Shown: piece by piece, positions 13,362-55,675 of the stretch
How positions within the stretch are numbered: position 1 is the stretch's first letter
Layout: every line of letters begins with the position of its first letter
From: an uncultured Bacillota bacterium
GTDB lineage: Bacteria; Bacillota_I; Bacilli_A; RFN20; CAG-826
Assembly (NCBI GenBank): GCA_949299565.1
Contig: OX437086.1
Location: forward strand, 414,919 to 478,918
Length of the DNA: 64,000 nt
Direction of reading: 5' to 3'
Program-made: the position numbers and the translations under genes
The notes under the pieces: model-generated
The model's input: only the letters and a program-made list of their open reading frames with translations
Told to the model about the DNA's origin: nothing
Database searches by the model: none

Positions 13362-13363
13362 CA

Positions 13364-14518: not shown

Positions 14519-14526
14519 GTTTGAAT

Positions 14527-16867: not shown

Positions 16868-16890
16868 AAGTGCTTGGAGCACTTTTTATC
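16868..16890 (+). promoter_or_regulatory. Terminator-like hairpin holding the flippase ribosome-binding site
   Basis: AAGTGCT (16868-16874) and AGCACTT (16878-16884) pair around TGG, followed by a T-run to 16887. The only Shine-Dalgarno-like GGAG of the next gene lies across the loop and 3' arm, 5 bases from ATG 16892. It may act as an attenuator or as translational control. Confidence 0.5.
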
Positions 16891-16891
16891 A

Positions 16892-18475: not shown

Positions 18476-18509
18476 TCTCGAAACGGCGATTCGCGGTTTT
18501 GTTCTTGTT

Positions 18510-19715
18510 TTATTTACTGCTTATTAGTTTATCGTAAAGTTCAATATATTCGTTTGCAAAATGTTCTCGCGAATATGGTTTTGCTGTTTCTAATATTTGT
18601 TTAATATTCATTTTATTCGAAACCAACTCATATATTTTTTTCTTTGTATTTTCAACGTCATCAGTCGGCACAACATATCCGTTAATTCCGTCTTTTATCA
18701 TTTCTGCCGCTCCGCCGGAATTGAAGCAAATTATTGGAGTGCCGCAAGATATACACTCTAAGTTTACGGTTGGAAAATTATCGCGTTTCGTTGGGTTCAA
18801 AAAAACATCAATTGTAGAATAAAAAGAGGCCATTTTTTGGCGTGAAGAGATGCGTGGTCTTAAAACGAGATTTGGGCAATTGTTTTTTTCGATTTCATTT
18901 TCTGGCGCTCCAAATCCAATAATAATGAACTTGTTAGGATCCAATGCATTTGCAAGTCTTTTGATAAAGTTTAACCCTTTTCCTTCATTCAACAGATATG
19001 CAGCGACGCCTATAATGAATCTACCATCGGCCAGCTTTAACAACGTTTCATAAGGAGCTGTTCTCTTGAATATTTTTTGATCTACTCCGTTTCTAATGAT
19101 TTCGACATTCGTGAAGTTGTATCTTGTTTCGAAAATGTTTTTTAGCCATTGAGAGGGGCTGACAAAAACTATATTGGATGAGTAGTTTTTAATTAAATTT
19201 TCTTTTTTCAACGAGTATTTTTTTACTTTTTTTCGAATAGATGTGGGGTAATAATCGCGATGCGGACAAACAACACAACCATTTTTCCATAACTCGCAGC
19301 CGAAAGAATAACAGCATCTCCCGGTAACGAGCCATTCATCATGTAACGTCCAAACGATTTTGATATTACTTTTTGATGCAAATTCAATAACTTTTTCTAT
19401 GTTTATAAAGGAACTATGAACATTATTTATGTGGATGAGATCTGGTCTCTCTCTTTTTAAAAAGTTGATTGCTTTTTTTGTACCGACGGTATTGCAAAAT
19501 CCATCGTTTCCAACGAGATATGTGTAAAGCCTGCTTGATTTGTATGACAATGAACTAGTTCTTAATTGAAGCACGTTGTAATCGCTAATATCGCTTTTTT
19601 CTCTATAGATGTAGCACATTGAAGCATTTCTTTTTTCTTTTAGAAAAAATGAAATATCCTTAATTATGTTTCCAGTAGATCCGTTCACCCAACCATTTAT
19701 AAAGCAAATTTTCAT
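18510..19715 (-). CDS. GT4 glycosyltransferase with Cys-rich insert, reversed in the locus
   Basis: A 401-residue GT-B glycosyltransferase. The N-terminal domain contains the Cys-rich stretch WTLHDEWLVTGRCCYSFGCE (near 122-141) followed by WKNGCVVCPH, a pattern of one GT4 subgroup. The C-terminal domain has FLNPTKRDNFPTVNLECISCG (about 310-330), carrying the usual E-x7-E-like nucleotide-sugar site, and GINGYVV. It is transcribed opposite to the rest of the locus from its own TGC-TATCTT promoter, ending 34 bases from the flippase stop. This suggests separate acquisition or independent control. It is clearly AT-rich. Confidence 0.85.
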   Translation of the reverse strand: MKICFINGWVNGSTGNIIKDISFFLKEKRNASMCYIYREKSDISDYNVLQLRTSSLSYKSSRLYTYLVGNDGFCNTVGTKKAINFLKRERPDLIHINNVHSSFINIEKVIEFASKSNIKIVWTLHDEWLVTGRCCYSFGCELWKNGCVVCPHRDYYPTSIRKKVKKYSLKKENLIKNYSSNIVFVSPSQWLKNIFETRYNFTNVEIIRNGVDQKIFKRTAPYETLLKLADGRFIIGVAAYLLNEGKGLNFIKRLANALDPNKFIIIGFGAPENEIEKNNCPNLVLRPRISSRQKMASFYSTIDVFLNPTKRDNFPTVNLECISCGTPIICFNSGGAAEMIKDGINGYVVPTDDVENTKKKIYELVSNKMNIKQILETAKPYSREHFANEYIELYDKLISSK

Positions 19716-19722
19716 AATTATT

Positions 19723-19731
19723 AAGATAGCA
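19723..19731 (-). promoter_or_regulatory. Extended -10 of the reversed glycosyltransferase, predicted leaderless
   Basis: On the minus strand TGC precedes TATCTT, whose end lies 7 bases from the start codon. Its neighbour on the plus strand is the licD promoter, about 38 bases away. Confidence 0.5.
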
Positions 19732-19768
19732 CTTTGTTACATTAACAGTAACTAATACATAAATGGGA

Positions 19769-19774
19769 TATAAT
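19769..19774 (+). promoter_or_regulatory. -10 box of licD, predicted leaderless
   Basis: Perfect TATAAT ends 6 bases before ATG 19781, so the transcript should begin at the A of the start codon. An upstream ATG at 19763 would place the promoter inside the gene and is rejected. Confidence 0.7.
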
Positions 19775-19780
19775 AAAAAT

Positions 19781-20620
19781 ATGAAAAAGCACATTCTTAA
19801 TGAAGTCAAATTGAGCAAAGAAGAAGTTATCCAACTAAGAAAGACACAATTGGAGATTCTAGATTTTTTTTGCGATTTTTGTGAAAAGAATAATTTAAAA
19901 TACTATTTATTTGGCGGCACGCTCTTAGGTGCTGTTCGTCATAAGGGCTATATCCCTTGGGATGATGACTTAGATTTATGTATGCCATATGAAGATTATG
20001 CAAAAATGCTGAAGCTTTTCCCAAAAGATGGAAATTTTTTTCTAGAGGACGTTTCGACAGATAAGCATTATTTCCATTCTTTTGCGAAAATAATGAAAGC
20101 GAATACTGTTTATCGTGAATATAGAGTGCAAAACGTTAGATATCGACAATCTATTTTCATAGATATTTTCCCAATAATTTATGTTCCGAATTCAAATAAT
20201 CTCGCGTATTTTAATTTTTGTTTAGCGTATGAATTGCTTAGCATTAGGCTGCAGCCTAAATTAATAAAAATGCCAAGTGATAAAAAAACATCGCTGAAAA
20301 GAAAAGCTGCCATTTGCCTATCTTGGTTGCTTCTTTGGTGGTGTCCGAAAACAATCGCCGCAAAACTAAGATATAAATTAATTGACCATTACGGGAAAAA
20401 AGAAACTAATACCATTTCAGTTGGAATGCTTTTAACTGGGCATCGATATCCATCAAGTGCTTTTTCTGGTCTTAGCAAGGTCGAATTTGAAGGGAGAATG
20501 CTTAGTGCGCCTGAAAATTACGATGAGTATCTTAATATAAAGTTCGGAGAGTATATGGAACTACCTCCTTTAGAGAATCGCGAGGCGCATCACTATTTAG
20601 TAGAGTTTAAAGCTGATTAA
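19781..20620 (+). CDS. LicD-family phosphotransferase
   Basis: A 279-residue LicD/fukutin-type nucleotidyltransferase-fold protein with YLFGGTLLGAVRHKG (near 41) and IPWDDDLDL (near 57), the motifs that bind metal and nucleotide diphosphate. LicD proteins move phosphocholine, or other phospho-alcohols, from CDP-linked donors onto teichoic acid or polysaccharide sugars. The very next gene carries a cytidylyltransferase domain, so a CDP-linked donor made there could be used here. The identity of the phospho-group is not determined. The start at 19781 is set by the promoter. Confidence 0.9.
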   Translation: MKKHILNEVKLSKEEVIQLRKTQLEILDFFCDFCEKNNLKYYLFGGTLLGAVRHKGYIPWDDDLDLCMPYEDYAKMLKLFPKDGNFFLEDVSTDKHYFHSFAKIMKANTVYREYRVQNVRYRQSIFIDIFPIIYVPNSNNLAYFNFCLAYELLSIRLQPKLIKMPSDKKTSLKRKAAICLSWLLLWWCPKTIAAKLRYKLIDHYGKKETNTISVGMLLTGHRYPSSAFSGLSKVEFEGRMLSAPENYDEYLNIKFGEYMELPPLENREAHHYLVEFKAD

Positions 20621-20630
20621 CAATTAGAGT

Positions 20631-22139
20631 TTGGAACATAAGTTTGAGTCGTTAGAGTTCTTTATTGATTTTGTATTTCACGATTGTAAACTAGTTTGCA
20701 TGAACGAAACTTGCTTAAGTAACTTTTTGGTTTATAGGGATTTTCCTGATGGAGTTACGCTTGATTATTTAATTGACAAAGTAATTTCTAAAGGAAAGAG
20801 ATACCTAATTAAGGACATAAATGATTTGGATAGTGCAATAAAAGAAAGTCTTAAAGATGTAGATTTTTCTAAGACTGGAATTCTTTTATCTGGCGGTGTT
20901 GATTCAGCGCTTTTAGCTTCATATTGTCCTCCAGGAACATTAGCATTTACGATAAGCTATCCAGAAATAAGCGATTTTGACGAAGCCAAACAAGCAGAAA
21001 TATACGCTAATAAATTCGGTTTGCGATTAGTTAAAGTTCCCGTGGTATTCCAAGACGTCTTAGATTTTCAAGACGACATTATGCTCTTTAAAAAAGAGCC
21101 GTTGTCCAGCATTGAAATTGCGCTCCATAAGTGTGCGTTACGTGCTCTAGATTTTGGGTTAGAGAATCTTCTTACTGGAATGGGCGCTGATGCTATTTTT
21201 GGCGGTCTTACGAACATAATGTCTAGAACGTGGACAAAAGATGATTTTATTAAGCGATATACATTCTTAGATCCAGCTAAGGCATTGAAAGAGCCGCAAG
21301 CGGATTATTCTTTTTTTGATGAATTTTTAATTGATGGGAGTTTCGATGCCAATCTTTTCATGCAAAAAGTTTTTGGAAAATCCACGCAAAAATATTTTTT
21401 GTCTGCTGTTGAATCAGTTGGCGTGAATTTGATAGCTCCGTTTGAACATTTTGATCGAGGTTTTCCTCTTTCTATCGACGATATGCTTAATGGTCACGAA
21501 AAAAGAATGTTACGTGAACTATTGAGCGAAAGAAGTGGCGGTCTAGCTGCCCCTAAAAAGCGACCGTTGCCAAGGCCATTGAGTGTTTGGAAAAATTACT
21601 TCGGAGATTTGATTAATCCTGAATTTTTGCCTGACGCATACAACAATTGCCAAACCGATGAGCAAAGGTGGCTTCTATACACTTTAGATCATTGGTTGTA
21701 TCTCCAAAAAAACAATTGCTTTAAGCATTACGATGTTTGTTATACAACGGGCGTTTATGATATGTTCCACATGGGGCATTTGAATCTTTTAAGAAGAGCT
21801 TCAAAGATGTGCAATAAGTTAATTGTCGGAGTGACAAATGACTCTTTGGTTTCGTATAAACACAAACACTCAACGATTTGTTTTGAAGACCGAATCAGAA
21901 TTGTTCGCTCGTTACCGTTTGTTTATAAAGCTGTTGAGCAAAGCGACATGAATAAAAAGGAAGCATGCATTAGGTTTGGCGCTAATGCTATCGTTGTCGG
22001 TGACGATTGGAAGAACACAGAGAAATGGAACAATTACGAAAAGGAGTTATCCGAAGTCGGAATTGATGTCATTTATTTGCCATACACTAAAAGAATTTCG
22101 ACTACAAAATTAGTGGAAACGATAAAATCTGAAAAGTAA
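20631..22139 (+). CDS. Fusion: asparagine-synthase-like domain plus TagD-like cytidylyltransferase
   Basis: A 502-residue two-domain protein. Residues about 80-330 resemble the ATP-pyrophosphatase half of asparagine synthetase (PP-loop GILLSGGVDSALLAS near 84, LLTGMGADAIFGG near 182), but the N-terminal glutaminase domain with its Cys is absent. Residues about 368-502 form a glycerol-3-phosphate-type cytidylyltransferase (TTGVYDMFHMGHLNLL with the HxGH site, GVTNDSLV, and a closing KRISTTKLV). It probably makes a CDP-activated and perhaps amidated or aminoacylated group for LicD. TTG 20631 is the start of the open frame; ATG 20700 is an alternative that keeps both domains. I know no characterised protein with this architecture. 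Confidence 0.8.
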   Translation: MEHKFESLEFFIDFVFHDCKLVCMNETCLSNFLVYRDFPDGVTLDYLIDKVISKGKRYLIKDINDLDSAIKESLKDVDFSKTGILLSGGVDSALLASYCPPGTLAFTISYPEISDFDEAKQAEIYANKFGLRLVKVPVVFQDVLDFQDDIMLFKKEPLSSIEIALHKCALRALDFGLENLLTGMGADAIFGGLTNIMSRTWTKDDFIKRYTFLDPAKALKEPQADYSFFDEFLIDGSFDANLFMQKVFGKSTQKYFLSAVESVGVNLIAPFEHFDRGFPLSIDDMLNGHEKRMLRELLSERSGGLAAPKKRPLPRPLSVWKNYFGDLINPEFLPDAYNNCQTDEQRWLLYTLDHWLYLQKNNCFKHYDVCYTTGVYDMFHMGHLNLLRRASKMCNKLIVGVTNDSLVSYKHKHSTICFEDRIRIVRSLPFVYKAVEQSDMNKKEACIRFGANAIVVGDDWKNTEKWNNYEKELSEVGIDVIYLPYTKRISTTKLVETIKSEK

Positions 22140-42347: not shown

Positions 42348-43787
42348 ATGGCTCAAATAAAAAACGATGCGATCACACGGCAAGAAGATGATTTCGCGCA
42401 GTGGTACACCGACGTTTGCCGGAAAGCAAAATTGATGGACTATGCTTCAACTAAAGGCTTTATCGTTTATTTGCCGGATGGCTATGCGCTTTGGGAAGGC
42501 ATCAAAAATTACCTTGATAAGCGTTTTAAAGAAGAAGTTAAAGCTCGCAATGTTTATTTGCCTTTGATTATTCCTTCCTCTCTTTTTAATAAAGAAAAAG
42601 AACATGTTGAAGGCTTTGCGCCCGAAACGTTAGTTGCGACGATTGGAGGGGGCAAAAAATTAGAGGACCCCTTAGTTATTCGTCCAACTTCCGAAGTTCT
42701 TTTCAGCGATCTATATCGGAAAATCCTTTCCTCTTATCGCGATTTGCCGTTGATTTACAATCAGTGGTGCAGCGTTGTCCGCTGGGAAAAAACAACGCGT
42801 CCCTTTTTAAGGGGTGCCGAATTTTTATGGCAAGAAGGACATTGCTTATTTGCTTCAAAAGAAGAGGCCGTCAATAACGTCCTGCAAGTATTAGACATTT
42901 ATGATCGTTTAGGCAAAGAACTTTTGGCGACCCCCTTCCTTAAAGGGCGCAAAACAGAACGTGAAAAGTTCGCCGGCGCCGTTGATACTTTCTCAATTGA
43001 AGCATTGATGCCTGATGGCAAGGCGCTTCAGGCTGGAACCACTCACTATTTAGGACAAGGCTTTGCAGAGGCCTTCGGCATCTCTTATCAAGGAAAGAAC
43101 AACGCTTTAGAAATCCCTCATCAAACATCATGGGGCGTTTCAACGCGCTTAATCGGGGCTCTCATTATGTGCCACGGCGATGACAATGGTTTGGTTTTGC
43201 CGCCGGCCATTGCTCCGATTCAAGTTGCAATTGTTCCGATCCGCGCCTCCGTTAGTGGCGTTATGGAAACCGCGCGTTCATTAGAAAAAACTTTATCGAA
43301 TTTAGGCGTTCGCACCTTCCTTTATGATGATGAAAGCAAAACGCCGGGTTATAAATTTGCTGAATTGGAAATGAAAGGCATTCCTTTGCGTCTTGAGATC
43401 GGCCCGAAGGATTTAGAAAAAGGAGAAGTGAGTCTCACAATCCGTTTCTCTTCAGAAAAAAGAACGTTGCCTTTATCTGCGATTGCGACATCTATTCCTT
43501 CTCTCCTTCAAGAAATTCAAACAAAGATGTATGAGCGGGCTGAAAAATATCGCGACCAGCATATTACCGAGGTCAATTCGCTTGAAGAACTCAAAGAAGT
43601 CCTCGATCGCGGGGGATATGCATTGATGGCCCATGACGGAGAAGAGGAAACAGAGTTAAAAATCAAGGAACTGACAAACGGCGGAACGGCCCGTTGCATT
43701 AAGGAAGATATAAGAGAGAAAGGCACTCTATGTCCGATTTCTGGCAAAGAGGCTAAATATCTTTGCTATTTTGCAAAAGCTTACTAG
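42348..43787 (+). CDS. proS: Prolyl-tRNA synthetase, archaeal/eukaryal type
   Basis: A 479-residue class IIa ProRS of the short type without editing domain, as in some Bacillota and in archaea. It has class II motif 2 with VRWEKTTRPFLRGAEFLWQEGH (about 145-166), RPTSEVLFS (near 109), MCHGDDNGLVLPP (near 275) and a C-terminal zinc-less extension ending in CYFAKAY. AGGAAAGG is the Shine-Dalgarno. It is probably co-transcribed with the degenerate EAL gene. The helicase gene behind it has its own promoter. Confidence 0.96.
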   Translation: MAQIKNDAITRQEDDFAQWYTDVCRKAKLMDYASTKGFIVYLPDGYALWEGIKNYLDKRFKEEVKARNVYLPLIIPSSLFNKEKEHVEGFAPETLVATIGGGKKLEDPLVIRPTSEVLFSDLYRKILSSYRDLPLIYNQWCSVVRWEKTTRPFLRGAEFLWQEGHCLFASKEEAVNNVLQVLDIYDRLGKELLATPFLKGRKTEREKFAGAVDTFSIEALMPDGKALQAGTTHYLGQGFAEAFGISYQGKNNALEIPHQTSWGVSTRLIGALIMCHGDDNGLVLPPAIAPIQVAIVPIRASVSGVMETARSLEKTLSNLGVRTFLYDDESKTPGYKFAELEMKGIPLRLEIGPKDLEKGEVSLTIRFSSEKRTLPLSAIATSIPSLLQEIQTKMYERAEKYRDQHITEVNSLEELKEVLDRGGYALMAHDGEEETELKIKELTNGGTARCIKEDIREKGTLCPISGKEAKYLCYFAKAY

Positions 43788-43886: not shown

Positions 43887-46800
43887 ATGGCTAATAAAAA
43901 CATCAAGATTAAGATTGAGGGCAATTCCTCATTGAATTATGTTTATCAGCAATCGGAAGCTCTCATCAAAAAGAGAACTTTTTCCAGCAAAACGAACGCT
44001 TTTTCTTTTTTGCGGGCTGTTGAGATTGTCAATTCATCAGAGGAGGATATCGTAGACGCGGTCGTTCATTTTACAAGCGAACCGTCGTGGATCAGCTTCG
44101 ATGACGTCAACATCTCGTGTTTAGAGAAAAACAAAACGACGATCATCGACAATTTCATAAGCCATATTGATTTATTAGCTCTTTATCAAGTCAAGGAAGC
44201 AGTTGACGCTAATTTAACAATCCGCATTCTCAACCATGATGGCGATGTGCTCTACACGAAAAGCAAAGCCTTTAAAATCCTTCCGCTCGAGCAATCCGCC
44301 AACGGCGATATCGATGAGACGCTAGCTTGTTTTGTCCGTCCTTACGATTCAGAAGTTCTTAATGTCGTTGAAAATGCAAAATCCTATTTAAAGAAGAAAT
44401 ACGACGTTGAGTCTTTTGCCGGTTACCAATATCACGATCCGAATAAAGTGGTGGAGCAATTAGACGCTTTAACTTCGACTATCAAAGCCTTGAATTTTAA
44501 TTACAGCGAGCCGCCCGCTAATTTCTCAAGAATTTTTGAACGAATTCATCTTTTCCAGGCGATGTTTGAAGAAAGAACCGCAACATCATTAGATTTAGCC
44601 CTTTTATTGGCCTCGGTTCTAGAAAATGTTGGTCTTCGCCCGCTTTTAACGAGAATGGATAATCATATTCTTGTCGGCGTTTTTCTTGACGATGAAATAT
44701 CTTTGTTGCCGAAAGAAGAGAATGCTTCGATTCTCTTGAACCAAGCATCGCGAGGTTTCAACCACCTTTTGCTTTTAGATGCCCGCGATTTAGCTAGTGG
44801 TGGTCTTTCATCTTTGACAAGCATGAGCGAAAAAGCATATCAAACTTTACGGGATGAAAAAGGATTTCAATATGCTTTAGACATTCTTTCTTGCCGGAAG
44901 GAGGGTCTTTATCCGATACCATCGCTTTCTCATGATGGTGCGATTGATTTTTCCTTTCTCGAAGAAGAAAGCAACACCGAAAATTTGACAATCGATCTCG
45001 AAGATCGCCGCTATATCGATGAGCATAAAACTTCACATGCCAATCGCTTTGATTATTGGGAAGAGAAACTTCTTGATTTAAATTTGCGAAATCGTTTAAT
45101 TTCTTTGCCTTTCACTTCTTCCGGACTTCAACTTCTTGTAAGCGATGCTGAACTCTTTTTAAAAACTCTTTCAGCACGTGAAAAAGTGACATTGGTTCGC
45201 ACTTCGCTCGGCGTCAGCGGTTCAGAACCAGAAAAGCGGGGACCATGGGACTTTCCGCGTTCTATTTACAGCAAAGAATGCCAAGAGGCTTATCGTAAGG
45301 GCATAATTCCTTTGATTGCTCGCGGGCAAACCGACACGGACGAATGGCTCAAATCATTAGCGAGACGCGCGAATACAGCAATCGAAGAAAGTGGTTGTAA
45401 TCCTCTTTTCCTCACTTTAGGTCTCATCAAATGGTATGACAACGAAAAGGCAGCCACGCATGGTACGGGTGCGATGTATGCACCTATTTTCCTTTTGCCT
45501 GTTAAAATGCCGAGGCGACGACTGGGCAATAATTTCGTGATCGATTACTCTTTTGATGATCTTCAACTTAATACGACATGTTTTGAATATTTCCGTCAAG
45601 TTCATGGTTTAGATTTTACGCCGCTCATTGGCGGACTCCCGATGTTAAATGACGGGACAATCGATCTCCGACTTATTTACAATACGATCCGTCAAATAAT
45701 TGCTCGCAAGAAAAACTGGGTTTTAATTGAGGAGACCAGCGTCCTTTCGCTTTTCTCTTTCGCACATTTCGTCATGTGGAACGATATTAAAACGAGACGT
45801 GAGGAATTGTTGCGCAATAAAGTTGTTCTTTCGCTTGTCGATGGACAGTTGGAATGGACTCCGAACACGTCGTTAGCCAAGCCTGAAGAATTTGATGAGA
45901 AATTATTTCCGACGTCATTAGCGATTCCGCTTCCGGCTGATTCATCGCAAATTAAAGCCATTCAAGATGCGACAGAAGGAGAATCGTTCATTCTTGATGG
46001 TCCGCCGGGAACTGGCAAATCGCAAACGATTGCCAATATGATTGTCAATTTCTTATATCATGGGAAAACAATACTTTTTGTCGCTGAAAAAGAAGTAGCC
46101 CTCGACGTTGTTAAAAAGCGCTTGAGTGACTTAGGTTTAGGGGATTTTTGTTTGGAAATTGCCAACCCGAACGCCATTAAAAGCCAGATATTGTTGCAGA
46201 TTGGACGCCTTTTGGAATTAGGACCGACAAAGGAAGCTTCAAAATATGAGGAGACTGCTGACCAGATATTGGAAAAACGCCGCAAATTGAACTCTATTTT
46301 GGCGGATTTGCATGAAAAAGGCTCGTTCTACTGTTCACCGTACGAAGCGATTCTTAAATACCTTGCTACCAATATCGAGAAAGGAAAGCTAGTCGTCACG
46401 CCAGAATATGCACGAAACCTCAATGAAGAAATGCACCGAGAAGCCATCGAAGATCTTAAAGAGATTGTCCGTTGCGATTCTTTAGTGGGTGGTTATCGTA
46501 CTTCGCCTTTCGCTCCCTTTACAAGCCGCAATTATTCAATGGATCTCCGTGATCGTTTATTGACGCGCCTTCAAGAGGATATTCCTCTTTATGAGGAAGC
46601 ATATCGCGCTCGTTACAATCTCTTCCTCAAGAAAAACGTCGTCTCTTTTTCAAGGCAGGATTCTTTCCTTCTTGCTGATTTGTTAATTCTTTTCCGTGAC
46701 CATCCGGATATTATTCCTGAATTTTTAGGTGATCAGATGGTTGAAGAACGACACGAAGAGATTAAGCGTTACGCGGAAGATTTAAAAATTTATTGGGAAA

Positions 46801-49751
46801 AACGTGAACTTCTCCTCCGTGAGTTCTCAGAAACCATCTTAGATGAAGATGGTGAAGCTCTCCGTTCTCGTTATTTAGATGCGCAGGCGCTTCCGTTTTT
46901 CGCGAAGCGAAAATTATTGAAAACAGTAACTTTGCCATTCAAAAATGCCCTTCATTCGGGCATTAAATGGCATAAAGACCTTATGCCGTCTCGATTAGAA
47001 TGGTTGGCTGATTATAGCGCCGCTAATCATCGCTTAAAAAATTATATTTCCAGCATCAGCGAACTTTTTAAAGAACGCATGCCTCACGGACACGAAGACG
47101 CTCTCCATTTAGAAAGTGCTTTAGAGGCTACATTAAAAGCCAACAACCTTCTTTTGAAACTTACTTTGCTCCCCAAAACTTCAAAAAGAACGCTTATCGC
47201 TCAATTTAAATCATTCTTAAAGAATAAGGACGAACTCTACGATCAAAGCATCAACGGATATTTGGAAATCATTGAGAAAGTAAAGGGAGAGGAACAAATC
47301 CTCAAAAATGAATATAGTTTCGATGTTGAACTCTATCCTCCTCTTGCCGATGCTTTCAAAGGCATTGCTCAGAAGTTCCAAGCAGCTTTGGCGATGGGAG
47401 GTTCTCTGGCTGATTGGGTGAAATTGCTCAATGCTTTGGATAAAGCGGGGAAAGAAGTCCCGAGCGCGCTTTTGAATTCTTATAAAGAGGGGAACATCCT
47501 TCCAAATAAACTTATTGCCTCTTATGAATGTGGTCTTTCGTATGAAGTTTTGGCTTTGTCTTTGGAAGAAAAACAACTCAACGGATTAAATGGCGACGAT
47601 ACGGATAAAATCATTAAGAAATATGGAGATTTAGTCGAAGAATTTTCACGTTTGACAGTCATTGAGACAGTTTCGCGCGTCACGACGAAATTTCCGGCAT
47701 CGGACGCTAATTACGCGCAGTCGACAGCAATGTATCAATTACGAAAATTAGCTAAAAATGGCGGGCGAGGCGTTTCTCTACGCTCAATTTTTGAACAGTA
47801 CGGTGACTTGATTCATACTCTTTGCCCGTGCTTTTTGATGTCACCGATTGCGGTAGCGCAATTTTTGAAACCAGAAGCGCATCTTTTCGACATGGTGATT
47901 TTTGATGAGGCTTCACAAATTCCGACTTCAGAAGCTGTTGGAGCAATCGCTAGAGGCAAGGCCTGCATCATCGCCGGCGACCAACAGCAGATGCCGCCGA
48001 GCAATTATTTTGCCTCAACCATTTCTCTTCAAGGCGACGACTATGTGCCGTTTTTATCGCTGGAAGAGGATCTAGAATCATTATTGGATGATGCGATCGT
48101 TATTGGATTTCCTCGTAAACGTCTCACATGGCATTATCGTTCTAAACACGAGTCCTTGATCGCTTTCTCTAACCGCAAATTCTATGACAATTCTCTTTTG
48201 ACTTTCCCTTCGCCAGGCGAAGAACGTTCGGCTGTTTCTTTCCGTAATGTCGGAGGTCTATATGAGAAAGGACGCGCCATCAATCGCGTTGAAGCTAAGG
48301 CGATTGTCGATGAAATCCTCAAGAGATTGAAAGATCCGCTCCTTTCCAAGAAATCAATCGGCGTTGTGACTTTTAACGAAGCCCAGCAAAACTTGGTTGA
48401 AGACTTGCTTGATCGGGCATTTGCTCGCAATAGCAATTTGAACAGCAATCCAGGCGGTGAGAGCATTTTCGTCAAGAATCTTGAAAATGTTCAGGGTGAT
48501 GAACGCGATGTCATTCTTTTCTCAATTTGTTATGCGCCAGAGGTTAAGGGCGGGAAATTAGCGCTCAATTTCGGCCCTCTCTCTAGAGAAAAAGGAGAAC
48601 GAAGACTGAATGTTGCCGTGTCTCGCGCTCGCGAAGAGATGATTGTTTTCTCTTCAATCGAACCGCAAGATGTCCGGGCTGAACGTGCCAAAAATGCCGG
48701 CGCTTCCTATCTTCGCGATTTCTTGACGTTTGCTAAAGAGGGCGTAGATTCTTTGCCTAATTATGTCGGCGCTTCTTTAAAAAAGCCGCAGCTTTCCGTC
48801 GCTTCCTTCCTTGCTAACGACTTGCGGAAACTTGGCTATCAAGTGGATGTTGGAATCGGAGCTTCTACTTTGAAAATCGATTTGGCAATTCGAAGTCCCG
48901 AAGATCCTAATCGTTATATTCTTGGCTTATTGATGGATGGCGATTCCTATACTTCTTGCGCGACATGCCGAGATCGCAATTTAGGGCAACCGGAAACTTT
49001 GAGGCGTTTAGGCTGGAACCTTTTAAGGATTTGGTCGGTAGAATATCTAGACCATCCGGTGGCGACCTGCAAAAAAATCGTCAACGTCATCAATGAATGT
49101 TTAGCGGGACGTTACCAACTAGAAGAAGAGATGACGAATGATGACTTTGCCGGTGAAGTTTCTTTCGAAAAGAAGAAAGTAGAGATGCGTCCGCATGCGA
49201 TTTACTATAGTCGCGAACCTCTTCTTTCAGCACGAAAGTTTGAAAATAGCGAATTCGAACGTAACTTCTTGGCCAATCATTTCACTTCAATCATTAAGGC
49301 TGAAGCTCCGATTTCTCGTCATCTATTAGAAACGCGTTTTAAGGAAATTTACAATCTCACGCGAATGACGGCTTCGGTTAAAAGTCTTTTCAACCAAGCT
49401 TTAGAAATGATCAGTTACTATGTTGAAATGTGCGGCGGGGAGGAATTCTATTGGCCCAGTGCGTTAGAAGCATTTTCCTATCGCTTCTATCGTCTTCCGA
49501 ATCCGAATGTTCCACGCGCGCTTGAAGACATTTCCTACATCGAAATCGGAAACGCCTTCGCGGACGTCTTAGAGACTCAGGGAATGATGTCGATGGAAGA
49601 TCTTTTCAAACAAACTTCCTTAATCTTCGGTTATGGCGTTCTCTCAGAGAAAGCGCGCTTAACCTTAGGAAAAGCCCTGACCGCTAATGCTGGAAAACGT
49701 TTAGGCATCGAAGCATTGCCGGACGGGCTTATCAGAATTGTTCACGAATGA
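43887..49751 (+). CDS. DUF4011/DUF3320 SF1 helicase with transglutaminase-like and Vsr-like domains
   Basis: A 1954-residue multidomain protein. A transglutaminase-like segment (about 220-260, TSLDLALLLASVLENVGL with NHILVG) has Ser where Cys is expected. DUF4011 starts near 390 (DYWEEKLLDLNLRNRLISL). The UPF1-like SF1 motor has Walker A GPPGTGKSQTIANM (near 704), motif II FDEASQIP (near 1337), NVQGDERDVI (near 1534) and NVAVSRARE (near 1574). A Vsr/MTES_1575 nuclease-like domain (about 1640-1720, KIDLAI, MDGDSYT, RDRN, LGWNLLRIWS) follows, then DUF3320 (about 1800-1860). The motor looks active. The family occurs in defence-associated regions. It is followed by a terminator and then the jet genes. 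Confidence 0.9.
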   Translation: MANKNIKIKIEGNSSLNYVYQQSEALIKKRTFSSKTNAFSFLRAVEIVNSSEEDIVDAVVHFTSEPSWISFDDVNISCLEKNKTTIIDNFISHIDLLALYQVKEAVDANLTIRILNHDGDVLYTKSKAFKILPLEQSANGDIDETLACFVRPYDSEVLNVVENAKSYLKKKYDVESFAGYQYHDPNKVVEQLDALTSTIKALNFNYSEPPANFSRIFERIHLFQAMFEERTATSLDLALLLASVLENVGLRPLLTRMDNHILVGVFLDDEISLLPKEENASILLNQASRGFNHLLLLDARDLASGGLSSLTSMSEKAYQTLRDEKGFQYALDILSCRKEGLYPIPSLSHDGAIDFSFLEEESNTENLTIDLEDRRYIDEHKTSHANRFDYWEEKLLDLNLRNRLISLPFTSSGLQLLVSDAELFLKTLSAREKVTLVRTSLGVSGSEPEKRGPWDFPRSIYSKECQEAYRKGIIPLIARGQTDTDEWLKSLARRANTAIEESGCNPLFLTLGLIKWYDNEKAATHGTGAMYAPIFLLPVKMPRRRLGNNFVIDYSFDDLQLNTTCFEYFRQVHGLDFTPLIGGLPMLNDGTIDLRLIYNTIRQIIARKKNWVLIEETSVLSLFSFAHFVMWNDIKTRREELLRNKVVLSLVDGQLEWTPNTSLAKPEEFDEKLFPTSLAIPLPADSSQIKAIQDATEGESFILDGPPGTGKSQTIANMIVNFLYHGKTILFVAEKEVALDVVKKRLSDLGLGDFCLEIANPNAIKSQILLQIGRLLELGPTKEASKYEETADQILEKRRKLNSILADLHEKGSFYCSPYEAILKYLATNIEKGKLVVTPEYARNLNEEMHREAIEDLKEIVRCDSLVGGYRTSPFAPFTSRNYSMDLRDRLLTRLQEDIPLYEEAYRARYNLFLKKNVVSFSRQDSFLLADLLILFRDHPDIIPEFLGDQMVEERHEEIKRYAEDLKIYWEKRELLLREFSETILDEDGEALRSRYLDAQALPFFAKRKLLKTVTLPFKNALHSGIKWHKDLMPSRLEWLADYSAANHRLKNYISSISELFKERMPHGHEDALHLESALEATLKANNLLLKLTLLPKTSKRTLIAQFKSFLKNKDELYDQSINGYLEIIEKVKGEEQILKNEYSFDVELYPPLADAFKGIAQKFQAALAMGGSLADWVKLLNALDKAGKEVPSALLNSYKEGNILPNKLIASYECGLSYEVLALSLEEKQLNGLNGDDTDKIIKKYGDLVEEFSRLTVIETVSRVTTKFPASDANYAQSTAMYQLRKLAKNGGRGVSLRSIFEQYGDLIHTLCPCFLMSPIAVAQFLKPEAHLFDMVIFDEASQIPTSEAVGAIARGKACIIAGDQQQMPPSNYFASTISLQGDDYVPFLSLEEDLESLLDDAIVIGFPRKRLTWHYRSKHESLIAFSNRKFYDNSLLTFPSPGEERSAVSFRNVGGLYEKGRAINRVEAKAIVDEILKRLKDPLLSKKSIGVVTFNEAQQNLVEDLLDRAFARNSNLNSNPGGESIFVKNLENVQGDERDVILFSICYAPEVKGGKLALNFGPLSREKGERRLNVAVSRAREEMIVFSSIEPQDVRAERAKNAGASYLRDFLTFAKEGVDSLPNYVGASLKKPQLSVASFLANDLRKLGYQVDVGIGASTLKIDLAIRSPEDPNRYILGLLMDGDSYTSCATCRDRNLGQPETLRRLGWNLLRIWSVEYLDHPVATCKKIVNVINECLAGRYQLEEEMTNDDFAGEVSFEKKKVEMRPHAIYYSREPLLSARKFENSEFERNFLANHFTSIIKAEAPISRHLLETRFKEIYNLTRMTASVKSLFNQALEMISYYVEMCGGEEFYWPSALEAFSYRFYRLPNPNVPRALEDISYIEIGNAFADVLETQGMMSMEDLFKQTSLIFGYGVLSEKARLTLGKALTANAGKRLGIEALPDGLIRIVHE

Positions 49752-49756
49752 GAAAT

Positions 49757-49782
49757 GCCCCCTTTAAGGGGGCTTTTCTTTC
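49757..49782 (+). terminator. Terminator between helicase and jetA
   Basis: GCCCCC (49757-49762) and GGGGGC (49768-49773) with loop TTTAA, followed by TTTTCTTT. It lies immediately before the jetA -10 box. Confidence 0.9.
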
Positions 49783-49785
49783 CTT

Positions 49786-49791
49786 TATAAT
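49786..49791 (+). promoter_or_regulatory. -10 box of jetABC, nearly leaderless
   Basis: Perfect TATAAT begins 4 bases after the helicase terminator T-run and ends 9 bases before ATG 49801. Confidence 0.6.
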
Positions 49792-49800: not shown

Positions 49801-51228
49801 ATGGATAAACGTAAACGCTTGAAACTCTTTGATAATATTCCACCAGAATTCTTCCGAGTTCTTGCTTATGGCTCAATTGAAGATTCTTTTGAATTAATTA
49901 TCGCGATCGATGACTTTTTTGGCAGCGGGGCCTTCGATGTTGATCGCGAAAAAATTGTCACTTATTTGGCTGATTACATTTCAACGAGAAGCAAGGAAGA
50001 AAAGAAAGAATTCGATCCCGAAGAGGAAGAAGGAATTACCGCTAGCGAAAAGGCTCGGAGTTTTTTAAGACGTCTTGTTCGTAGCGGTTGGCTCGACAAA
50101 GAATCGGGAGCCGATTTCAGCGAACGTCTTTCAAGAAGCGATGCTTTTATGAAGATTGTCCCGGTTTTACGGGAGATTGCTCTTGAAGAAACGAAGACTA
50201 ACGAATTCTTTGGTTTGTCTGATGATATTCATCGCTCCTTGCTTGCTTTTGATTTTGCTTCCTCCACGGCCGCTCTTGAACAATTAGAAGCTCGAAGCGA
50301 AGCTTTGACGCGCTATTTGCTATCGGTCAATTCGCAGATGCGGCGTTTTATTCATCGGGCTTTAGCAAATACCGATGTTTCTGAACGTCAGATTATCGAG
50401 ACGTTGCTCGATCGTTTCCAGCGCCATCCGGCACTTATCGCTCTCAATAACTTGCAGGGCAAAAACAATCCCGAACTTCATCATCCGGACATTGATCGGG
50501 CGCTTGAAAACTTGAGGGAAGTCGAGAATCACCGCGCATTGGTTCTCAATTATTTGGAGACGAAACATTTAGATCCGAACGACGAAAGCAATGTTCAAAA
50601 AGCTAGCGATTTCGTCGATCATGTTTTAGATGAAGTGGAGCGGCAATTCGACCAGATGCCGTCTTTCATTCAAGGCATTTCTGCACGCAACGCGATGTAT
50701 GTTCAAACGACAAAAAACATTTTGGAGTTCCGTCTCAATAATTTTAAAGACATTCAATCCGCGATCAATGCATGTTTGAAACTCATCAACAATTGCCCGG
50801 ATGATTTGGAAATCGATTCGCCGTTCTATCTAGTGAGCAGTTCGACAATCGATGCCCAGTCAATTTATAAACCGCGTCTTTTGCAGAAGAAAGCGCCAAA
50901 GAGTTTAGAGTTCGTGGAACCGGAAATTGATGAGAAGGCTCTGGCGAAAGCCGAAGCGTTTGTTCAAGAGGAGAACCGTTATTCTAAAAAAGGTTTATCG
51001 GCTTTCTTGCTTCTTAAAATGCGAAAGGAAGAAATGTTAGCCAGCGAATTTAAGGGAGAACCGCTTGAGACGTTTATCCGCTTGCTTTTAATCCCGGCTT
51101 ACAAATTAGATGGCTATAAAATCGGAGAACCAAGTGGGGAAAATTTCAAAATCGGACCCTATCGTTTAAATGATTATTTAATCGAGCGGAAGGAGGAAGA
51201 GACAAATGCCGAAAACACGGATAATTGA
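49801..51228 (+). CDS. jetA: JetA/MksF-like kleisin (DUF5716)
   Basis: A 475-residue protein matching the Wadjet JetA/MksF kleisin family. A winged-helix N-terminus carries LFDNIPPEFFRVLAYGSIED (about 9-28), a helical middle part runs about 130-330, and a C-terminal winged-helix region should contact the JetC head. It bridges the two heads of the JetC SMC and recruits JetB. It is followed by jetB with a 23-base overlap. The family assignment comes from order (A-B-C) and pattern; sequence identity to named members was not computed. Confidence 0.82.
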   Translation: MDKRKRLKLFDNIPPEFFRVLAYGSIEDSFELIIAIDDFFGSGAFDVDREKIVTYLADYISTRSKEEKKEFDPEEEEGITASEKARSFLRRLVRSGWLDKESGADFSERLSRSDAFMKIVPVLREIALEETKTNEFFGLSDDIHRSLLAFDFASSTAALEQLEARSEALTRYLLSVNSQMRRFIHRALANTDVSERQIIETLLDRFQRHPALIALNNLQGKNNPELHHPDIDRALENLREVENHRALVLNYLETKHLDPNDESNVQKASDFVDHVLDEVERQFDQMPSFIQGISARNAMYVQTTKNILEFRLNNFKDIQSAINACLKLINNCPDDLEIDSPFYLVSSSTIDAQSIYKPRLLQKKAPKSLEFVEPEIDEKALAKAEAFVQEENRYSKKGLSAFLLLKMRKEEMLASEFKGEPLETFIRLLLIPAYKLDGYKIGEPSGENFKIGPYRLNDYLIERKEEETNAENTDN

Positions 51229-51853
51229 CGATTTTCATGAGCGTTATGGAGCGATTGCTTCTAGCGACAGCAAGTGCGATCGCTTTGCAAAGATTGCCTT
51301 GCGTCTTTTGAATGAAACCTTTTTAGTTCAAGACCGTAAACAAGATGAGGATGATTACTATGTGGCGACCGGCCCTTATAAAGAACTTTTGAACGATTAT
51401 TTTTCGTTCCTCGATGTTTCTTTCCGCGTCGATCAAGACAAACGGATTTGTTATATCGTTGGCGAGAATGATCGCAACCGCTTGCGTCTCCATAAATTAG
51501 ATACCGTCTTGCTCTTAGTGATTCGTTCGTTGTCTTTCTCGGGCGAGCAAGATTTTCGGAGCCTTACGACTTTAAAAGTTTCAGTTAAGGATATTTTAAG
51601 CAAAATCGCGGAGACGGAGATTTATCCTAACGGCATTTCAATGTCGCAATTCCGCGATTCAATGCTTTTGTTAAGACGTTACAAAGTCATTGATTTTAAT
51701 GATGATCCTGGCAAGGATTCGACATTGGTGGCTATTTACAATTCTGTTCTTTTATTAGTGAGCGCCTCTTCTTTAGAGGATTTGGCGGAGCGCTTGGGCA
51801 AATACGTGGGAGTGACTGACGATGAAGAAACTACAACGAGTGAAGCTGATTAA
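51206..51853 (+). CDS. jetB: JetB/MksE-like protein (DUF4194)
   Basis: A 215-residue two-winged-helix protein of the DUF4194/MksE type, with FAKIALRLLNETFLVQD near residue 27 and YKVIDFNDDPGKDSTLVAIYNSVLLLVSA near the end. It binds the kleisin as the KITE subunit and stabilises the condensin complex. Its Shine-Dalgarno AAGGAGGAAGAG lies inside jetA. It overlaps jetA by 23 bases and jetC by 32 bases, so the three are translationally coupled in one operon. Confidence 0.82.
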   Translation: MPKTRIIDDFHERYGAIASSDSKCDRFAKIALRLLNETFLVQDRKQDEDDYYVATGPYKELLNDYFSFLDVSFRVDQDKRICYIVGENDRNRLRLHKLDTVLLLVIRSLSFSGEQDFRSLTTLKVSVKDILSKIAETEIYPNGISMSQFRDSMLLLRRYKVIDFNDDPGKDSTLVAIYNSVLLLVSASSLEDLAERLGKYVGVTDDEETTTSEAD

Positions 51854-54800
51854 TTGGCACTTATTCACAAATAGTACTTTGGATTTTTCGGGCAATGTCT
51901 TGATTTCCGGCGATAATGGAAGCGGAAAATCGACATTGGTCGATGCGATTCATTTCGTCCTTTCAGGCGGTTTGGCTCGTAACAAATTCAATATGGCTTC
52001 CAATAACGCCGTCAATCGCGGCCGCCGCAGTGTGGAAACTTATATGCGGGCGCGCATCGGGGCGGTTAATCAAGAATTTTTACGCCCGGAATCTGACATC
52101 ATCTCGCACATCGCTCTTGAATTTTATGACGAGTCTCGCGATCATCTTTTCACATTAGGCACCGTTCTTCAAATCAGTGGCGGAATCCTTTTGACGCCAT
52201 TCCGTTTTTATACTTTGTCTGAAGGATTTTCCGATGATTTGTTCTTTGAAACAAACGAAAACGGAAGTCGCTCAATCAGAAATTTTGATTCCTTAAGAAA
52301 AGCGGCCGAAGAACGTGAAATTGAATTTACAGCTTTAGATTCTCCGACAATCAACGGATCTTATCCTTTGGTCCGTCGTGTTTTAGATCTTCCGGATGAA
52401 TATGAAATGCTTCTCAGCAATGCGATTTGTTTTGATCCCGGCGCGGACCTTCTAGAATTTACCAATGATTTCCTATTGGAAAAGAAAGACGTCTCCTTGG
52501 ATGAAGTGAAGAAAGCCGCCAAAGCTTATTCAGAAATTGCTCAACTCCTCAACAAAGAAGAAGAAAAAGCAAATTTCCTCGCTCCGCTGGAAGAATTAAA
52601 TAAGCGAAGAAAAAGCGAGGAACGAAAGAAATTAGTCTTGGATTACAGCTCTTTGCGCCTTTCGTTATCTAAGTCAGAAGCAACGAAAAAAGAATGTTTA
52701 GATGCTTTGGTGAAATTAGAAGAATCCACAAAACGCAATCAAAAGCGGAAACTTGAAATTCAAAGCGAATTATTGTCGATTGAGAACCGTCGTCACGCGA
52801 TTGAAAGCGATTCTCAACTTGGAGAATTAGAAAAATTAAGAAGAGAAAGAGAAGCGCTTCTTCAGCAAAAAGAACAGCTCTCTTTGGATTACAACTCCTT
52901 CGACGAGGCTAAAGAAGAACTTTTGAATGGTGCCTCTAATCTCGGTTTTTCGACTTCTCTTGGCGAAGCCTATCGCGAAAGAGATGAGGAAAGTTTGCGT
53001 AAAGCATTGAACTCCTATCAATCAACTTTATCTTTAAGGCGGAATGAACTCCGCAGTCGTTTAGAGATGAAGGAGAAGACTCAAAATTCGATATTAGAAA
53101 AACTTAAAGAATTAGCCTCATTGATTACAACCCTCGAATCCCATCAAAAGGCTTATCCTGAAAAAGTTCGTTCTTTCTATGCTCTTTTGACGGAACGCTT
53201 TGCCACTGATGAAGATTTTGCAATGAATGCTTTCTGCGATTTAGTAGAGGTTACTGACGAAGCGTGGCGAGATGTTATCGAAGCGCTTTTGGATAAGCGA
53301 CGTTTCGATGTTTTTGTAGGCAATGTTCATTTTAAAGAAGCGGCTCGTCTTTTGGATGCGCATCAAGAATTGGCGGAAGGATTTGGAAACGGCGTCGTCG
53401 ATTCGTTGTCCCTGGAGGAAGGAATCTTTAAGGTCAACAATAGTTTGGCTGATAAAGTGAAGGCGATGGTCGCCTCTTCAAACGAAGAATTGCCGAGTGT
53501 TCGTCTCTATTTAGATTTCTTGCTCGGCGATATCGAATGCGTTGAAGAACCGGCTTGGGACAATATCAATAAATGGGTCACGAAAGACGGGCTCTATTTT
53601 GACGGCGTGACAATTAGACGCTTAGTGACCGGGGATCTTGTTCATTATTTAGGAAGCGACACGATCAGTCGTCGTTTGGAAGAAGCAAGAAAGCGTTATG
53701 ATCTTCTTTCCGAGGAACTCTCGAAATTAGAAGATGAAATTGCACCTCTCGCGAAGAAGATAGATGCTTCCAAGGATCTCGATGTTTTGTCTCTACGCCC
53801 TGTTTATCGTTTATGGGAAGAAGAGGAGAGCCTTAACCGCGACATTGAGGCCAACGAAGAAGCTAGAGAAGCTCTAGAGCATTCCTTGGACGCGAGTTCT
53901 TTAACATCAGTATCGGAAGCTTTAGAAGAACTCGATGAGAGCAAAGCCAAACTTATAAACGAAGACGGCGTTCTCGCTCAGGAAAAAGATGAATTATCTT
54001 TGGAAAAAGGACGTTTATCTTTGCAAATCGAGACGATAAATGGCGAATTGGCCACTAATCAAAACGCGCTTATCGCCTTCTTGAAAGAGCACAATGACCC
54101 CCTTATCAAAGAGGAAGCCGAAGAAGAAGAGAAAAAGGCAACCACTCTTGATTACGCCTATGCCGTACAAGAGAAGAAGAACGCTTTAATCAAATCAATC
54201 AGTGACAATGAGCGCGCGATGGTGAAGTTGATGTCGCAGTTTAATGAACGCTTCAATTCAAGCGATGTCGAACCCGTTGTTGAAAATGTCGAAATTTATC
54301 TTGAGCGTTATCGCAAGATTGTCTCTGATTCCTTGGTAGCGGGTCGCGCGAAGGCAGAAGAAGCTTCACGCAAAGCGGTAGAGAATTTTAAGAGCTCTTT
54401 CTTGATTGGCCTCCGCAGCAATATTCAACAGGCTAACGATTTGATCAATAAATTAAATCGTGTTCTCAAGAAGCATCCTTTCGGCGCCGACAATTCAATT
54501 TATCGTTTCGTGATCAAACCTACTGCCGATGCCGAATTAAGAAAGATTTACGATATCGCCGTTGAAACGAATGAAGATTACTTTGAGAATGATCTCTTTG
54601 CTCAACTTCTCTCACCAGAGAATCGTTCAACAATGGATTATTTGTTCAGTATTTTGGCTAACGAAAATCCGGCCGAAAGCAGTGCGGAAACAATTGAGCG
54701 TTTCTGCGACTACCGTAATTATCTGTCTTACGACATTGTCGAAGTTGCGGAAGACGGAACTGAAAAGCGTTATAGCGACAATATGCGTTCTCGTTCGGGC

Positions 54801-55100
54801 GGAGAAACGCAGACGCCGTTCTATGTTTTGATTGCAGCCAGTTTCGATAGCGCCTTTGAACTACGGAAACGGAGCGGCGCTTCTCCGTGTGAAATCGTAA
54901 TGCTCGATGAAGCTTTCAACAACATGGACAGCGATCGCATCGAAGACATGATGGAATTCTATCGAGCGTTGAACATTCAGTTGATTGTTTCGGTTCCAAC
55001 AAGTCGTTTCAATTATTTAGCTGACCATGTCGACACTTCCTTGATTTTAGTCAATAACAACGCGCATTTGACAGCTTATCAAGGTCGCAAAGAATCATAA
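51822..55100 (+). CDS. jetC: JetC/MksB-like SMC ATPase
   Basis: A 1092-residue SMC-type ATPase. Walker A GDNGSGKSTLV is near residue 30, long charged coiled-coil arms span about 240-430 and 620-880 with a hinge-like part near 440-600, signature RSGGETQTPF is near 991, and Walker B EIVMLDEAFNNMD near 1024. It is the DNA loop-extruding motor of Wadjet/Mks condensins, which recognises circular plasmid DNA. Its partner nuclease JetD/MksG is not encoded downstream. The start at 51822 follows GGGAG and yields the typical MKKLQRVKLINWHLF. Confidence 0.92.
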   Translation: MKKLQRVKLINWHLFTNSTLDFSGNVLISGDNGSGKSTLVDAIHFVLSGGLARNKFNMASNNAVNRGRRSVETYMRARIGAVNQEFLRPESDIISHIALEFYDESRDHLFTLGTVLQISGGILLTPFRFYTLSEGFSDDLFFETNENGSRSIRNFDSLRKAAEEREIEFTALDSPTINGSYPLVRRVLDLPDEYEMLLSNAICFDPGADLLEFTNDFLLEKKDVSLDEVKKAAKAYSEIAQLLNKEEEKANFLAPLEELNKRRKSEERKKLVLDYSSLRLSLSKSEATKKECLDALVKLEESTKRNQKRKLEIQSELLSIENRRHAIESDSQLGELEKLRREREALLQQKEQLSLDYNSFDEAKEELLNGASNLGFSTSLGEAYRERDEESLRKALNSYQSTLSLRRNELRSRLEMKEKTQNSILEKLKELASLITTLESHQKAYPEKVRSFYALLTERFATDEDFAMNAFCDLVEVTDEAWRDVIEALLDKRRFDVFVGNVHFKEAARLLDAHQELAEGFGNGVVDSLSLEEGIFKVNNSLADKVKAMVASSNEELPSVRLYLDFLLGDIECVEEPAWDNINKWVTKDGLYFDGVTIRRLVTGDLVHYLGSDTISRRLEEARKRYDLLSEELSKLEDEIAPLAKKIDASKDLDVLSLRPVYRLWEEEESLNRDIEANEEAREALEHSLDASSLTSVSEALEELDESKAKLINEDGVLAQEKDELSLEKGRLSLQIETINGELATNQNALIAFLKEHNDPLIKEEAEEEEKKATTLDYAYAVQEKKNALIKSISDNERAMVKLMSQFNERFNSSDVEPVVENVEIYLERYRKIVSDSLVAGRAKAEEASRKAVENFKSSFLIGLRSNIQQANDLINKLNRVLKKHPFGADNSIYRFVIKPTADAELRKIYDIAVETNEDYFENDLFAQLLSPENRSTMDYLFSILANENPAESSAETIERFCDYRNYLSYDIVEVAEDGTEKRYSDNMRSRSGGETQTPFYVLIAASFDSAFELRKRSGASPCEIVMLDEAFNNMDSDRIEDMMEFYRALNIQLIVSVPTSRFNYLADHVDTSLILVNNNAHLTAYQGRKES

Positions 55101-55101
55101 T

Positions 55102-55326
55102 TCAACAATCATCATCCAAAAGAATATAGACTTCTTCATGACGTGAATAATGAATCTTGTAAGGGAGATTCGCGTCGTGCAAGAAGTCTTTTATTTCGCG
55201 AATATATCGTTTAAAAGAAATTTCGCTTATTTCATAATCCGCGAGAATTTCATTGCGGGAGAGTTTTCTTTTTTTGAGTAAGAGGTGGTAGATAAATAAG
55301 CACGCTTCGGTTTTCTTAAAATGCAT
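55102..55326 (-). CDS. Small HTH protein opposite jetC
   Basis: A 74-residue protein with an HTH_11/DeoR-like helix-turn-helix (SRNEILADYEISEISFKRYIREI, about 24-46) and a short wing; there is no WYL domain. AGGAAGGA precedes its ATG. It ends 1 base from the jetC stop, head to head, and its C-terminus overlaps no other gene. It could regulate a nearby promoter or be the remnant of a longer WYL regulator; WYL-type regulators often control defence systems. No function is shown. Confidence 0.7.
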   Translation of the reverse strand: MHFKKTEACLFIYHLLLKKRKLSRNEILADYEISEISFKRYIREIKDFLHDANLPYKIHYSRHEEVYILLDDDC

Positions 55327-55583: not shown

Positions 55584-55675
55584 GGAGGCATACCCAAGAG
55601 GCCGAAGGGGGCAGTTTGCTAAACTGTTAGATCGGGTTTACCGGTGCTCGAGTTCGAATCTCGATGCCTCCGCCA
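55584..55675 (+). tRNA. tRNA-Ser(GCT)
   Basis: Acceptor GGAGGCA pairs with TGCCTCC, then G and encoded CCA. The anticodon stem CAGT/ACTG holds a loop with GCT. Long variable arm. 92 nt. It is the third of three serine tRNAs in the window, each with a different anticodon. Confidence 0.95.

What the first reader, a model, noticed from the sequence alone, without database searches (positions are those of the whole stretch)
49801..55326. Wadjet/Mks condensin operon jetA-jetB-jetC without a jetD nuclease
The sequence shows DUF5716 (JetA), DUF4194 (JetB) and an SMC ATPase (JetC) with intact Walker A, signature and Walker B motifs, all overlapping. In Wadjet the fourth gene, JetD (MksG), is a TOPRIM-like nuclease that cuts plasmid DNA after loop extrusion. 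Here the next frame is a 74-residue HTH gene facing the other way, then tRNA-Ser. Either JetD is elsewhere, was lost, or this is an Mks-type complex for chromosome organisation.
Basis: partly seen in the sequence, partly recalled or inferred. Interest (0 to 1): 0.7.

Follow-up and report, generated by a model that had tools for sequence, protein, structure and literature searches.

The report
Nuclease-less Wadjet as only condensin
A DNA-looping machine that normally destroys plasmids has lost its DNA-cutting part here and is the only chromosome-organising (SMC) complex found in this small bacterial genome, whose whole order lacks the usual one.

Summary
jetA, jetB and jetC overlap, are intact, and belong to the type I Wadjet family. 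No jetD follows them, and sensitive profiles find none anywhere in the 1.06 Mb single-contig genome. This is not an assembly error: six congeners carry the same jetABC, none has JetD, and in five of them jetC is followed by the same tRNA-Ser. In the JetC tree this clade is sister to complete, JetD-bearing Wadjets, so JetD was lost.

This genome has no Smc and no ScpB. No genome of its order (279 searched) has an Smc or ScpB hit over cut-off. Many families of the order instead keep a second JetD-less JetABC beside glycogen genes. Acholeplasma and phytoplasmas also lack Smc and carry JetD-less jetBC or jetABC. The window's jetABC is thus the only SMC complex found in its cell. It evolves as slowly as proS.

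A ProA-type helicase-nuclease gene lies just upstream, but a conserved terminator and promoter separate it from jetA, and one species carries jetABC without it nearby. A shared operon is therefore unlikely.

Best reading: a Wadjet turned into a nuclease-free, condensin-like loop extruder, comparable to MksBEF. Its function is inferred; no experiment was possible.

The parts
49801..51228 (+). jetA, kleisin subunit, 475 aa
   Evidence: Pfam PF18982 JetA 6.9e-43, PADLOC JetA1 1.8e-51
51206..51853 (+). jetB, KITE subunit, 215 aa; overlaps jetA by 23 nt
   Evidence: DUF4194 1.8e-15, PADLOC JetB1 6.5e-34
51822..55100 (+). jetC, SMC-type ATPase, 1092 aa; overlaps jetB by 32 nt
   Evidence: PADLOC JetC1 8.7e-195 over full length; invariant motifs
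51909..51932 (+). Walker A (GDNGSGKS, JetC residues 30-37)
   Evidence: sequence; N32, G33, G35, K36, S37 and T38 invariant in alignment A1
54795..54806 (+). ABC signature (SGGE, JetC residues 992-995)
   Evidence: sequence; invariant in alignment A1
54894..54911 (+). Walker B (IVMLDE, JetC residues 1025-1030)
   Evidence: sequence; V1026, D1029 and E1030 invariant in alignment A1
49757..49773 (+). intrinsic terminator between proA and jetA (GCCCCCTTTAAGGGGGC then TTTTCTTT)
   Evidence: terminator scan; a hairpin of the same kind stands in G249, G252, G253 and G255
49786..49791 (+). TATAAT, likely -10 box of a jetABC promoter of its own, 9 nt before the jetA ATG
   Evidence: sequence; TATAAT at the same place in G249, G252, G253 and G255, TATACT in G247
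43887..49751 (+). neighbour, probably not part of the complex: ProA-type anti-phage protein (DUF4011, SF1 helicase, MTES_1575 nuclease), 1954 aa
   Evidence: NCBIfam antiphage_ProA 1465 bits (cut-off 1500), PADLOC PDC-S37 5.9e-293
42348..43787 (+). proS (prolyl-tRNA synthetase by its sequence), conserved left flank of the locus
   Evidence: proS-proA order kept in most genomes of the genus examined
55584..55675 (+). tRNA-Ser(GCT), conserved right flank; follows proA directly in a species without jetABC
   Evidence: ARAGORN; empty site in L200

Best explanation
The genes encode a type I Wadjet-derived SMC complex (JetA kleisin, JetB KITE, JetC ATPase) whose lineage has lost the JetD nuclease. 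Without JetD it cannot make the Wadjet cut. It most likely keeps the motor step, ATP-driven DNA loop extrusion, and acts on the chromosome as a condensin. It would do so as the only SMC complex of the cell, because Smc-ScpAB is absent from the whole order and the order's usual JetD-less JetABC has been lost from this genus. Shown here: gene content, intact ATPase motifs, absence of JetD, Smc and ScpB, JetD loss on the tree, a fixed chromosomal position in six species and purifying selection. Inferred: loop extrusion (from known JetABC) and the chromosomal role.
For: No JetD in the genome or in any of the six nearest relatives; an order-specific JetD profile finds only G229 in 37 genomes of the genus. 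No canonical SMC and no ScpB in this genome. Its 16 SMC_N hits are one strong hit in a 363-aa frame (RecF-sized), JetC itself, and weak hits; the two largest weak frames were read and are ABC exporters. In 279 genomes of the order, 0 have an SMC over cut-off and 0 an ScpB over cut-off, while the controls ring. A second JetD-less JetABC occupies a conserved locus beside glycogen-synthesis genes in other families and genera of the order. The window's JetC clade is sister to JetD-bearing Wadjets (SH-aLRT 99) and JetD changes state 8 times on the tree. jetABC sits between proA and tRNA-Ser(GCT) in six species, JetC 52-54% identical to the window's. dN/dS is 0.04-0.09 for jetA, jetB and jetC, about that of proS (0.06); proA is 0.07-0.13. 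Outside the order the same pattern recurs: of 20 genomes tested, 10 of 11 without Smc carry JetD-less loci (Acholeplasma, phytoplasmas and kin), against 3 of 9 with Smc.
Against: Only 15 of 37 genomes of the genus carry any JetC, so the complex is not indispensable in the genus. G247 carries the same clade at another site while its ProA groups with species that lack it, which looks like horizontal transfer, more typical of defence genes. A Haloplasma, an Inordinaticella and a third relative have both Smc and a JetD-less JetABC, so JetD loss does not require Smc loss. No functional data exist.
Confidence: 0.55

Rival explanations
1. It is still an anti-mobile-element system, but it works without cutting: JetABC captures and compacts small circular DNA and so silences or loses it, much as Smc5/6 restricts extrachromosomal DNA in eukaryotes.
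For: The presence is patchy (15 of 37 genomes of the genus), transfer of jetABC to another site in G247 is likely, and its closest relatives are complete Wadjets.
Against: The position is stable in six species and selection is like that of a housekeeping gene. JetD-less accessory complexes fall almost wholly in genomes with no other condensin: 15 JetD-less against 8 JetD-bearing without the housekeeping copy, 1 against 12 with it (Fisher p 0.0013, not corrected for relatedness).
Confidence: 0.22
2. JetABC works with another nuclease in place of JetD, most obviously the ProA-type helicase-nuclease encoded next door.
For: proA lies about 50 nt upstream on the same strand in six species. ProA carries a PD-(D/E)XK-type MTES_1575 nuclease domain and belongs to an anti-phage family.
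Against: A terminator and a TATAAT box separate the two genes in all five species read. proA stands next to proS in most of the genus whether or not jetABC is present. G247 has jetABC far from proA. ProA diverges much faster than JetABC.
Confidence: 0.12
3. The operon is a decaying remnant of a Wadjet that lost jetD and is on its way out.
For: jetD is gone, and many congeners have no JetC.
Against: All three genes are intact in every clade member whose locus is complete, the ATPase motifs are invariant, dN/dS is 0.04-0.09, and the clade is old (52-54% identity).
Confidence: 0.03

Closest known systems
Wadjet type I (JetABCD, MksBEFG, EptABCD)
   Same: Subunits, gene order, overlaps and JetC1 profile; nested among JetD-bearing Wadjets in the JetC tree
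   Different: No JetD nuclease beside the genes or in the genome
MksBEF of Pseudomonas aeruginosa
   Same: A JetD-less MukBEF-like complex with a chromosomal role; [quoted passage not shown]
   Different: P. aeruginosa also has Smc-ScpAB; here no Smc or ScpB is found, and this JetD loss is placed within a JetC tree of Bacilli
MukBEF of enterobacteria
   Same: An SMC complex of the Muk/Mks/Jet branch standing in for Smc-ScpAB as the condensin (PMC10586767)
   Different: Subunits match Jet, not Muk, profiles; only weak MukB N-terminal similarity (E 5.4e-05)
ProA anti-phage family (NCBIfam NF058533, PADLOC PDC-S37)
   Same: The upstream neighbour matches it almost over its whole length
   Different: Falls just under NCBIfam's cut-off (1465 of 1500 bits) and is not co-transcribed with jetABC as far as sequence shows

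Membership tests
Wadjet type I | jetA, jetB and jetC homologues in this order | tested here: met
   PADLOC JetA1, JetB1, JetC1 and Pfam JetA, DUF4194
Wadjet type I | jetD (TOPRIM nuclease) as fourth gene or elsewhere in the genome | tested here: not met
   PF09983 and order-specific JetD profile negative in the genome
Wadjet type I | cleavage of small circular DNA | not testable with these tools
   needs purified proteins or a host strain
Wadjet type I | JetD-binding IFDR motif at the JetB N-terminus | tested here: inconclusive
   no IFDR seen in JetB N-termini of this region of the tree, JetD-bearing ones included, so the motif does not discriminate (motif from PMC10586767)
MksBEF (JetD-less chromosomal condensin) | Muk/Jet-type SMC, kleisin and KITE genes without a JetD/MksG nuclease | tested here: met
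MksBEF (JetD-less chromosomal condensin) | acts on the chromosome | not testable with these tools
   only indirect support: no Smc or ScpB, selection like proS
Smc-ScpAB | canonical Smc (TIGR02168) and ScpB (PF04079) | tested here: not met
   none in the genome; 0 of 279 genomes of the order over cut-off. ScpA was not searched
ProA anti-phage protein (upstream neighbour) | NCBIfam NF058533 at or above 1500 bits | tested here: not met
   1465.3 bits over residues 32-1916
ProA anti-phage protein (upstream neighbour) | DUF4011, SF1 helicase and MTES_1575 nuclease domains | tested here: met

The most novel reading that the evidence does not exclude
In a whole order of small-genome Bacilli, and separately in Acholeplasma and phytoplasmas, the bacterial condensin Smc-ScpAB is gone and JetABC complexes of the Wadjet family, stripped of the nuclease, serve as the only condensin. 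Some genera then lost that too, and the window's lineage re-acquired the function from a second Wadjet. Many relatives may live with no SMC complex at all: 69 of 150 high-quality genomes of the order have no JetC match, and none of the 279 has an Smc over cut-off.
Probability: 0.45. Interest if true: 0.82.

Novelty: new variant of a known kind. Interest (0 to 1): 0.62.

Why it matters
Whether Wadjet defence complexes gave rise to chromosomal condensins has been proposed from structures (PMC10586767) but, as far as the open-access library shows, not traced in living lineages. Here the loss of JetD can be placed on a tree several times, with complete Wadjets as sisters, in genomes with no other SMC complex found. 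That makes the switch from cutting plasmids to organising a chromosome directly testable. It also identifies culturable organisms without Smc (Acholeplasma laidlawii among them) in which JetABC can be studied alone, and points to bacteria that may lack condensins entirely.

Tried and rejected
JetD hidden elsewhere: rejected with two profiles. Assembly break at 55.1 kb: rejected, same junction in five other species. proA-jetABC as one operon with ProA as the replacement nuclease: the most attractive lead after the first family scans, weakened by a conserved terminator and TATAAT box between the genes, by proA standing beside proS without jetABC elsewhere in the genus, and by G247. The 74-aa HTH gene as part of the system or a jetD remnant: rejected, no counterpart at the compared loci. 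A hidden canonical Smc among the weak SMC_N hits: the 949-aa and 957-aa frames are ABC exporters. IFDR motif of JetB as a marker of JetD binding: uninformative in this part of the tree. Literature on the 'ProA' or Prometheus system: only passing mentions in the open-access library. Solved-structure search: the window's JetC profile reaches only the JetC head of one entry (8dk1) and MukB/Rad50/SMC heads; the housekeeping JetC profile reaches four JetC sequences in the PDB.

Full report
THE OBSERVATION. The window carries jetA (49801-51228), jetB (51206-51853) and jetC (51822-55100) on the + strand, overlapping by 23 and 32 nt. Profiles place them firmly: Pfam JetA 6.9e-43, DUF4194 1.8e-15, and PADLOC JetA1, JetB1 and JetC1 with the JetC1 match covering the whole protein at 8.7e-195. 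The ATPase motifs are intact, and their core residues are invariant in an alignment with nine relatives. After jetC comes a 74-aa HTH gene on the other strand and then tRNA-Ser(GCT).

NO JetD. The window lies in a single-contig genome of 1,061,998 bases estimated 99.98% complete. Pfam JetD_C finds nothing in it, though the control genome rings. A profile built from ten JetD proteins of the same order, searched against 37 genomes of the genus, finds one real JetD (G229, 501 bits) and none in this genome or its closest relatives. Six congeners (G245, G247, G249, G252, G253, G255) carry jetABC with JetC 52-54% identical to the window's; none has JetD. In five of them the same tRNA-Ser(GCT) follows jetC, so the junction at 55.1 kb is not an assembly error.

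JetD WAS LOST. A tree of 80 JetC sequences puts the window's clade (seven species, no JetD) beside four Wadjets that have jetD (G160, G221, G074, G066) with SH-aLRT 99; JetD changes state eight times on the tree, at least five of them forced by well-supported branches. The method was a quick search with one long branch (G237), so single placements are less sure than the overall pattern.

NO OTHER SMC COMPLEX. The genome has no canonical Smc (TIGR02168) and no ScpB (PF04079), while the controls ring. Its SMC_N hits are one strong hit in a 363-aa frame (RecF-sized), JetC itself, and weak hits; the two largest weak frames were read and are ABC exporters, not Smc. Across 279 genomes of the order, none has an Smc or an ScpB over cut-off. 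One genome, G011, has a C-terminal Smc fragment (391 bits); it may be real or a contaminant. In the order-wide scans only the best two candidates per genome were scored. When 20 genomes outside that scan were searched more fully, nine had full Smc scores of about 950-1070 bits and eleven had none.

WHAT THE ORDER USES INSTEAD. A second JetABC (JetC about 1120 aa, about 26% identical to the window's; Pfam JetA 298 bits in the copy tested) lies in a conserved position, in many genera followed by glycogen genes, without JetD. A profile of this JetC separates cleanly: copies of this housekeeping type score far above the accessory, Wadjet-like ones (up to 411 bits). The housekeeping type is missing from the window's genus and from several sister genera. 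The same pattern recurs in Acholeplasma and its kin: JetD-less JetABC and no Smc. In Candidatus Phytoplasma pruni jetB and jetC are present with no JetD, but the gene before jetB is not jetA.

FUNCTIONAL INFERENCE. Among accessory complexes of the order, those without JetD fall almost only in genomes that lack the housekeeping copy (15 without JetD and 8 with; 1 and 12 where the housekeeping copy is present; Fisher p 0.0013, not corrected for relatedness). jetA, jetB and jetC are under strong purifying selection (dN/dS 0.04-0.09), about as strong as proS (0.06), while proA evolves faster (0.07-0.13). The genes keep one position, between proA and tRNA-Ser(GCT), in six species. In G234, which lacks jetABC, proA is followed directly by that tRNA. 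These facts fit a maintained cellular function. Against it stand the patchy presence in the genus (15 of 37) and G247, where jetABC sits elsewhere and the host's ProA groups with species that lack jetABC.

THE NEIGHBOUR proA. Adjacency suggested a replacement nuclease. But a hairpin terminator (49757-49773) and a TATAAT box (49786-49791) separate the genes, and the same arrangement is seen in four other species (the pattern scan of the region finds no more sites than chance would, so the weight rests on conservation). proA stands next to proS in most of the genus, with or without jetABC. A joint complex is possible but not the first choice.

COMPARISON WITH THE KNOWN. By subunits this is a type I Wadjet; by the absence of JetD it fails that membership and resembles MksBEF of Pseudomonas, which a review (PMC10586767) says likely arose from JetABCD by losing JetD. 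Searches of the open-access library showed no report of a JetD-less JetABC as the only SMC complex in Bacilli, Acholeplasma or phytoplasmas; subscription papers were not searchable. I call it a new variant of a known kind.

LIMITS. Function is inferred from sequence. Genomes of the order are mostly metagenome assemblies; presence is safer than absence in them. Fisher tests ignore shared ancestry.

Noticed in passing
order-wide searches: 69 of 150 high-quality genomes of the order show no JetC match and no genome has an Smc over cut-off; G236, G244 and G256 (95-96% complete) are examples. They may have no SMC condensin at all.
   Followed up: partly
L172:8419-13273 (Candidatus Phytoplasma pruni): jetB and jetC are intact, but the gene before jetB looks like a HAD-type hydrolase, not jetA; the kleisin is elsewhere, diverged or lost. 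L179 (another phytoplasma) also has a 262-aa gene before jetB.
   Followed up: partly
L097-L116, e.g. L109:5979-11415: A JetD-less jetABC stands beside glycogen-synthesis genes in many genera of the order and looks like its housekeeping condensin.
   Followed up: yes
window 43887-49751: ProA-type anti-phage genes occur in 97 of 279 genomes of the order and in the window's genus sit mostly beside proS, an unusually stable place for a defence gene.
   Followed up: partly
L126, L127, L140: Inordinaticella, a Haloplasmataceae genome and Haloplasma carry a JetD-less JetABC although they have a full Smc.
   Followed up: partly
window 12036-22139: AT-rich stretch (GC about 0.31-0.38) with EpsG, glycosyltransferases, LicD and a cytidylyltransferase: probably a surface-polysaccharide locus.
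   Followed up: partly
G011:C55:381-1463: The only strong canonical Smc match in the order, a C-terminal fragment of 391 bits; real remnant or contamination not settled.
   Followed up: no
L029:1468-5547 (G152): An accessory JetC with no JetD behind it in a genome that also has the housekeeping JetC, the one exception to the pattern.
   Followed up: partly
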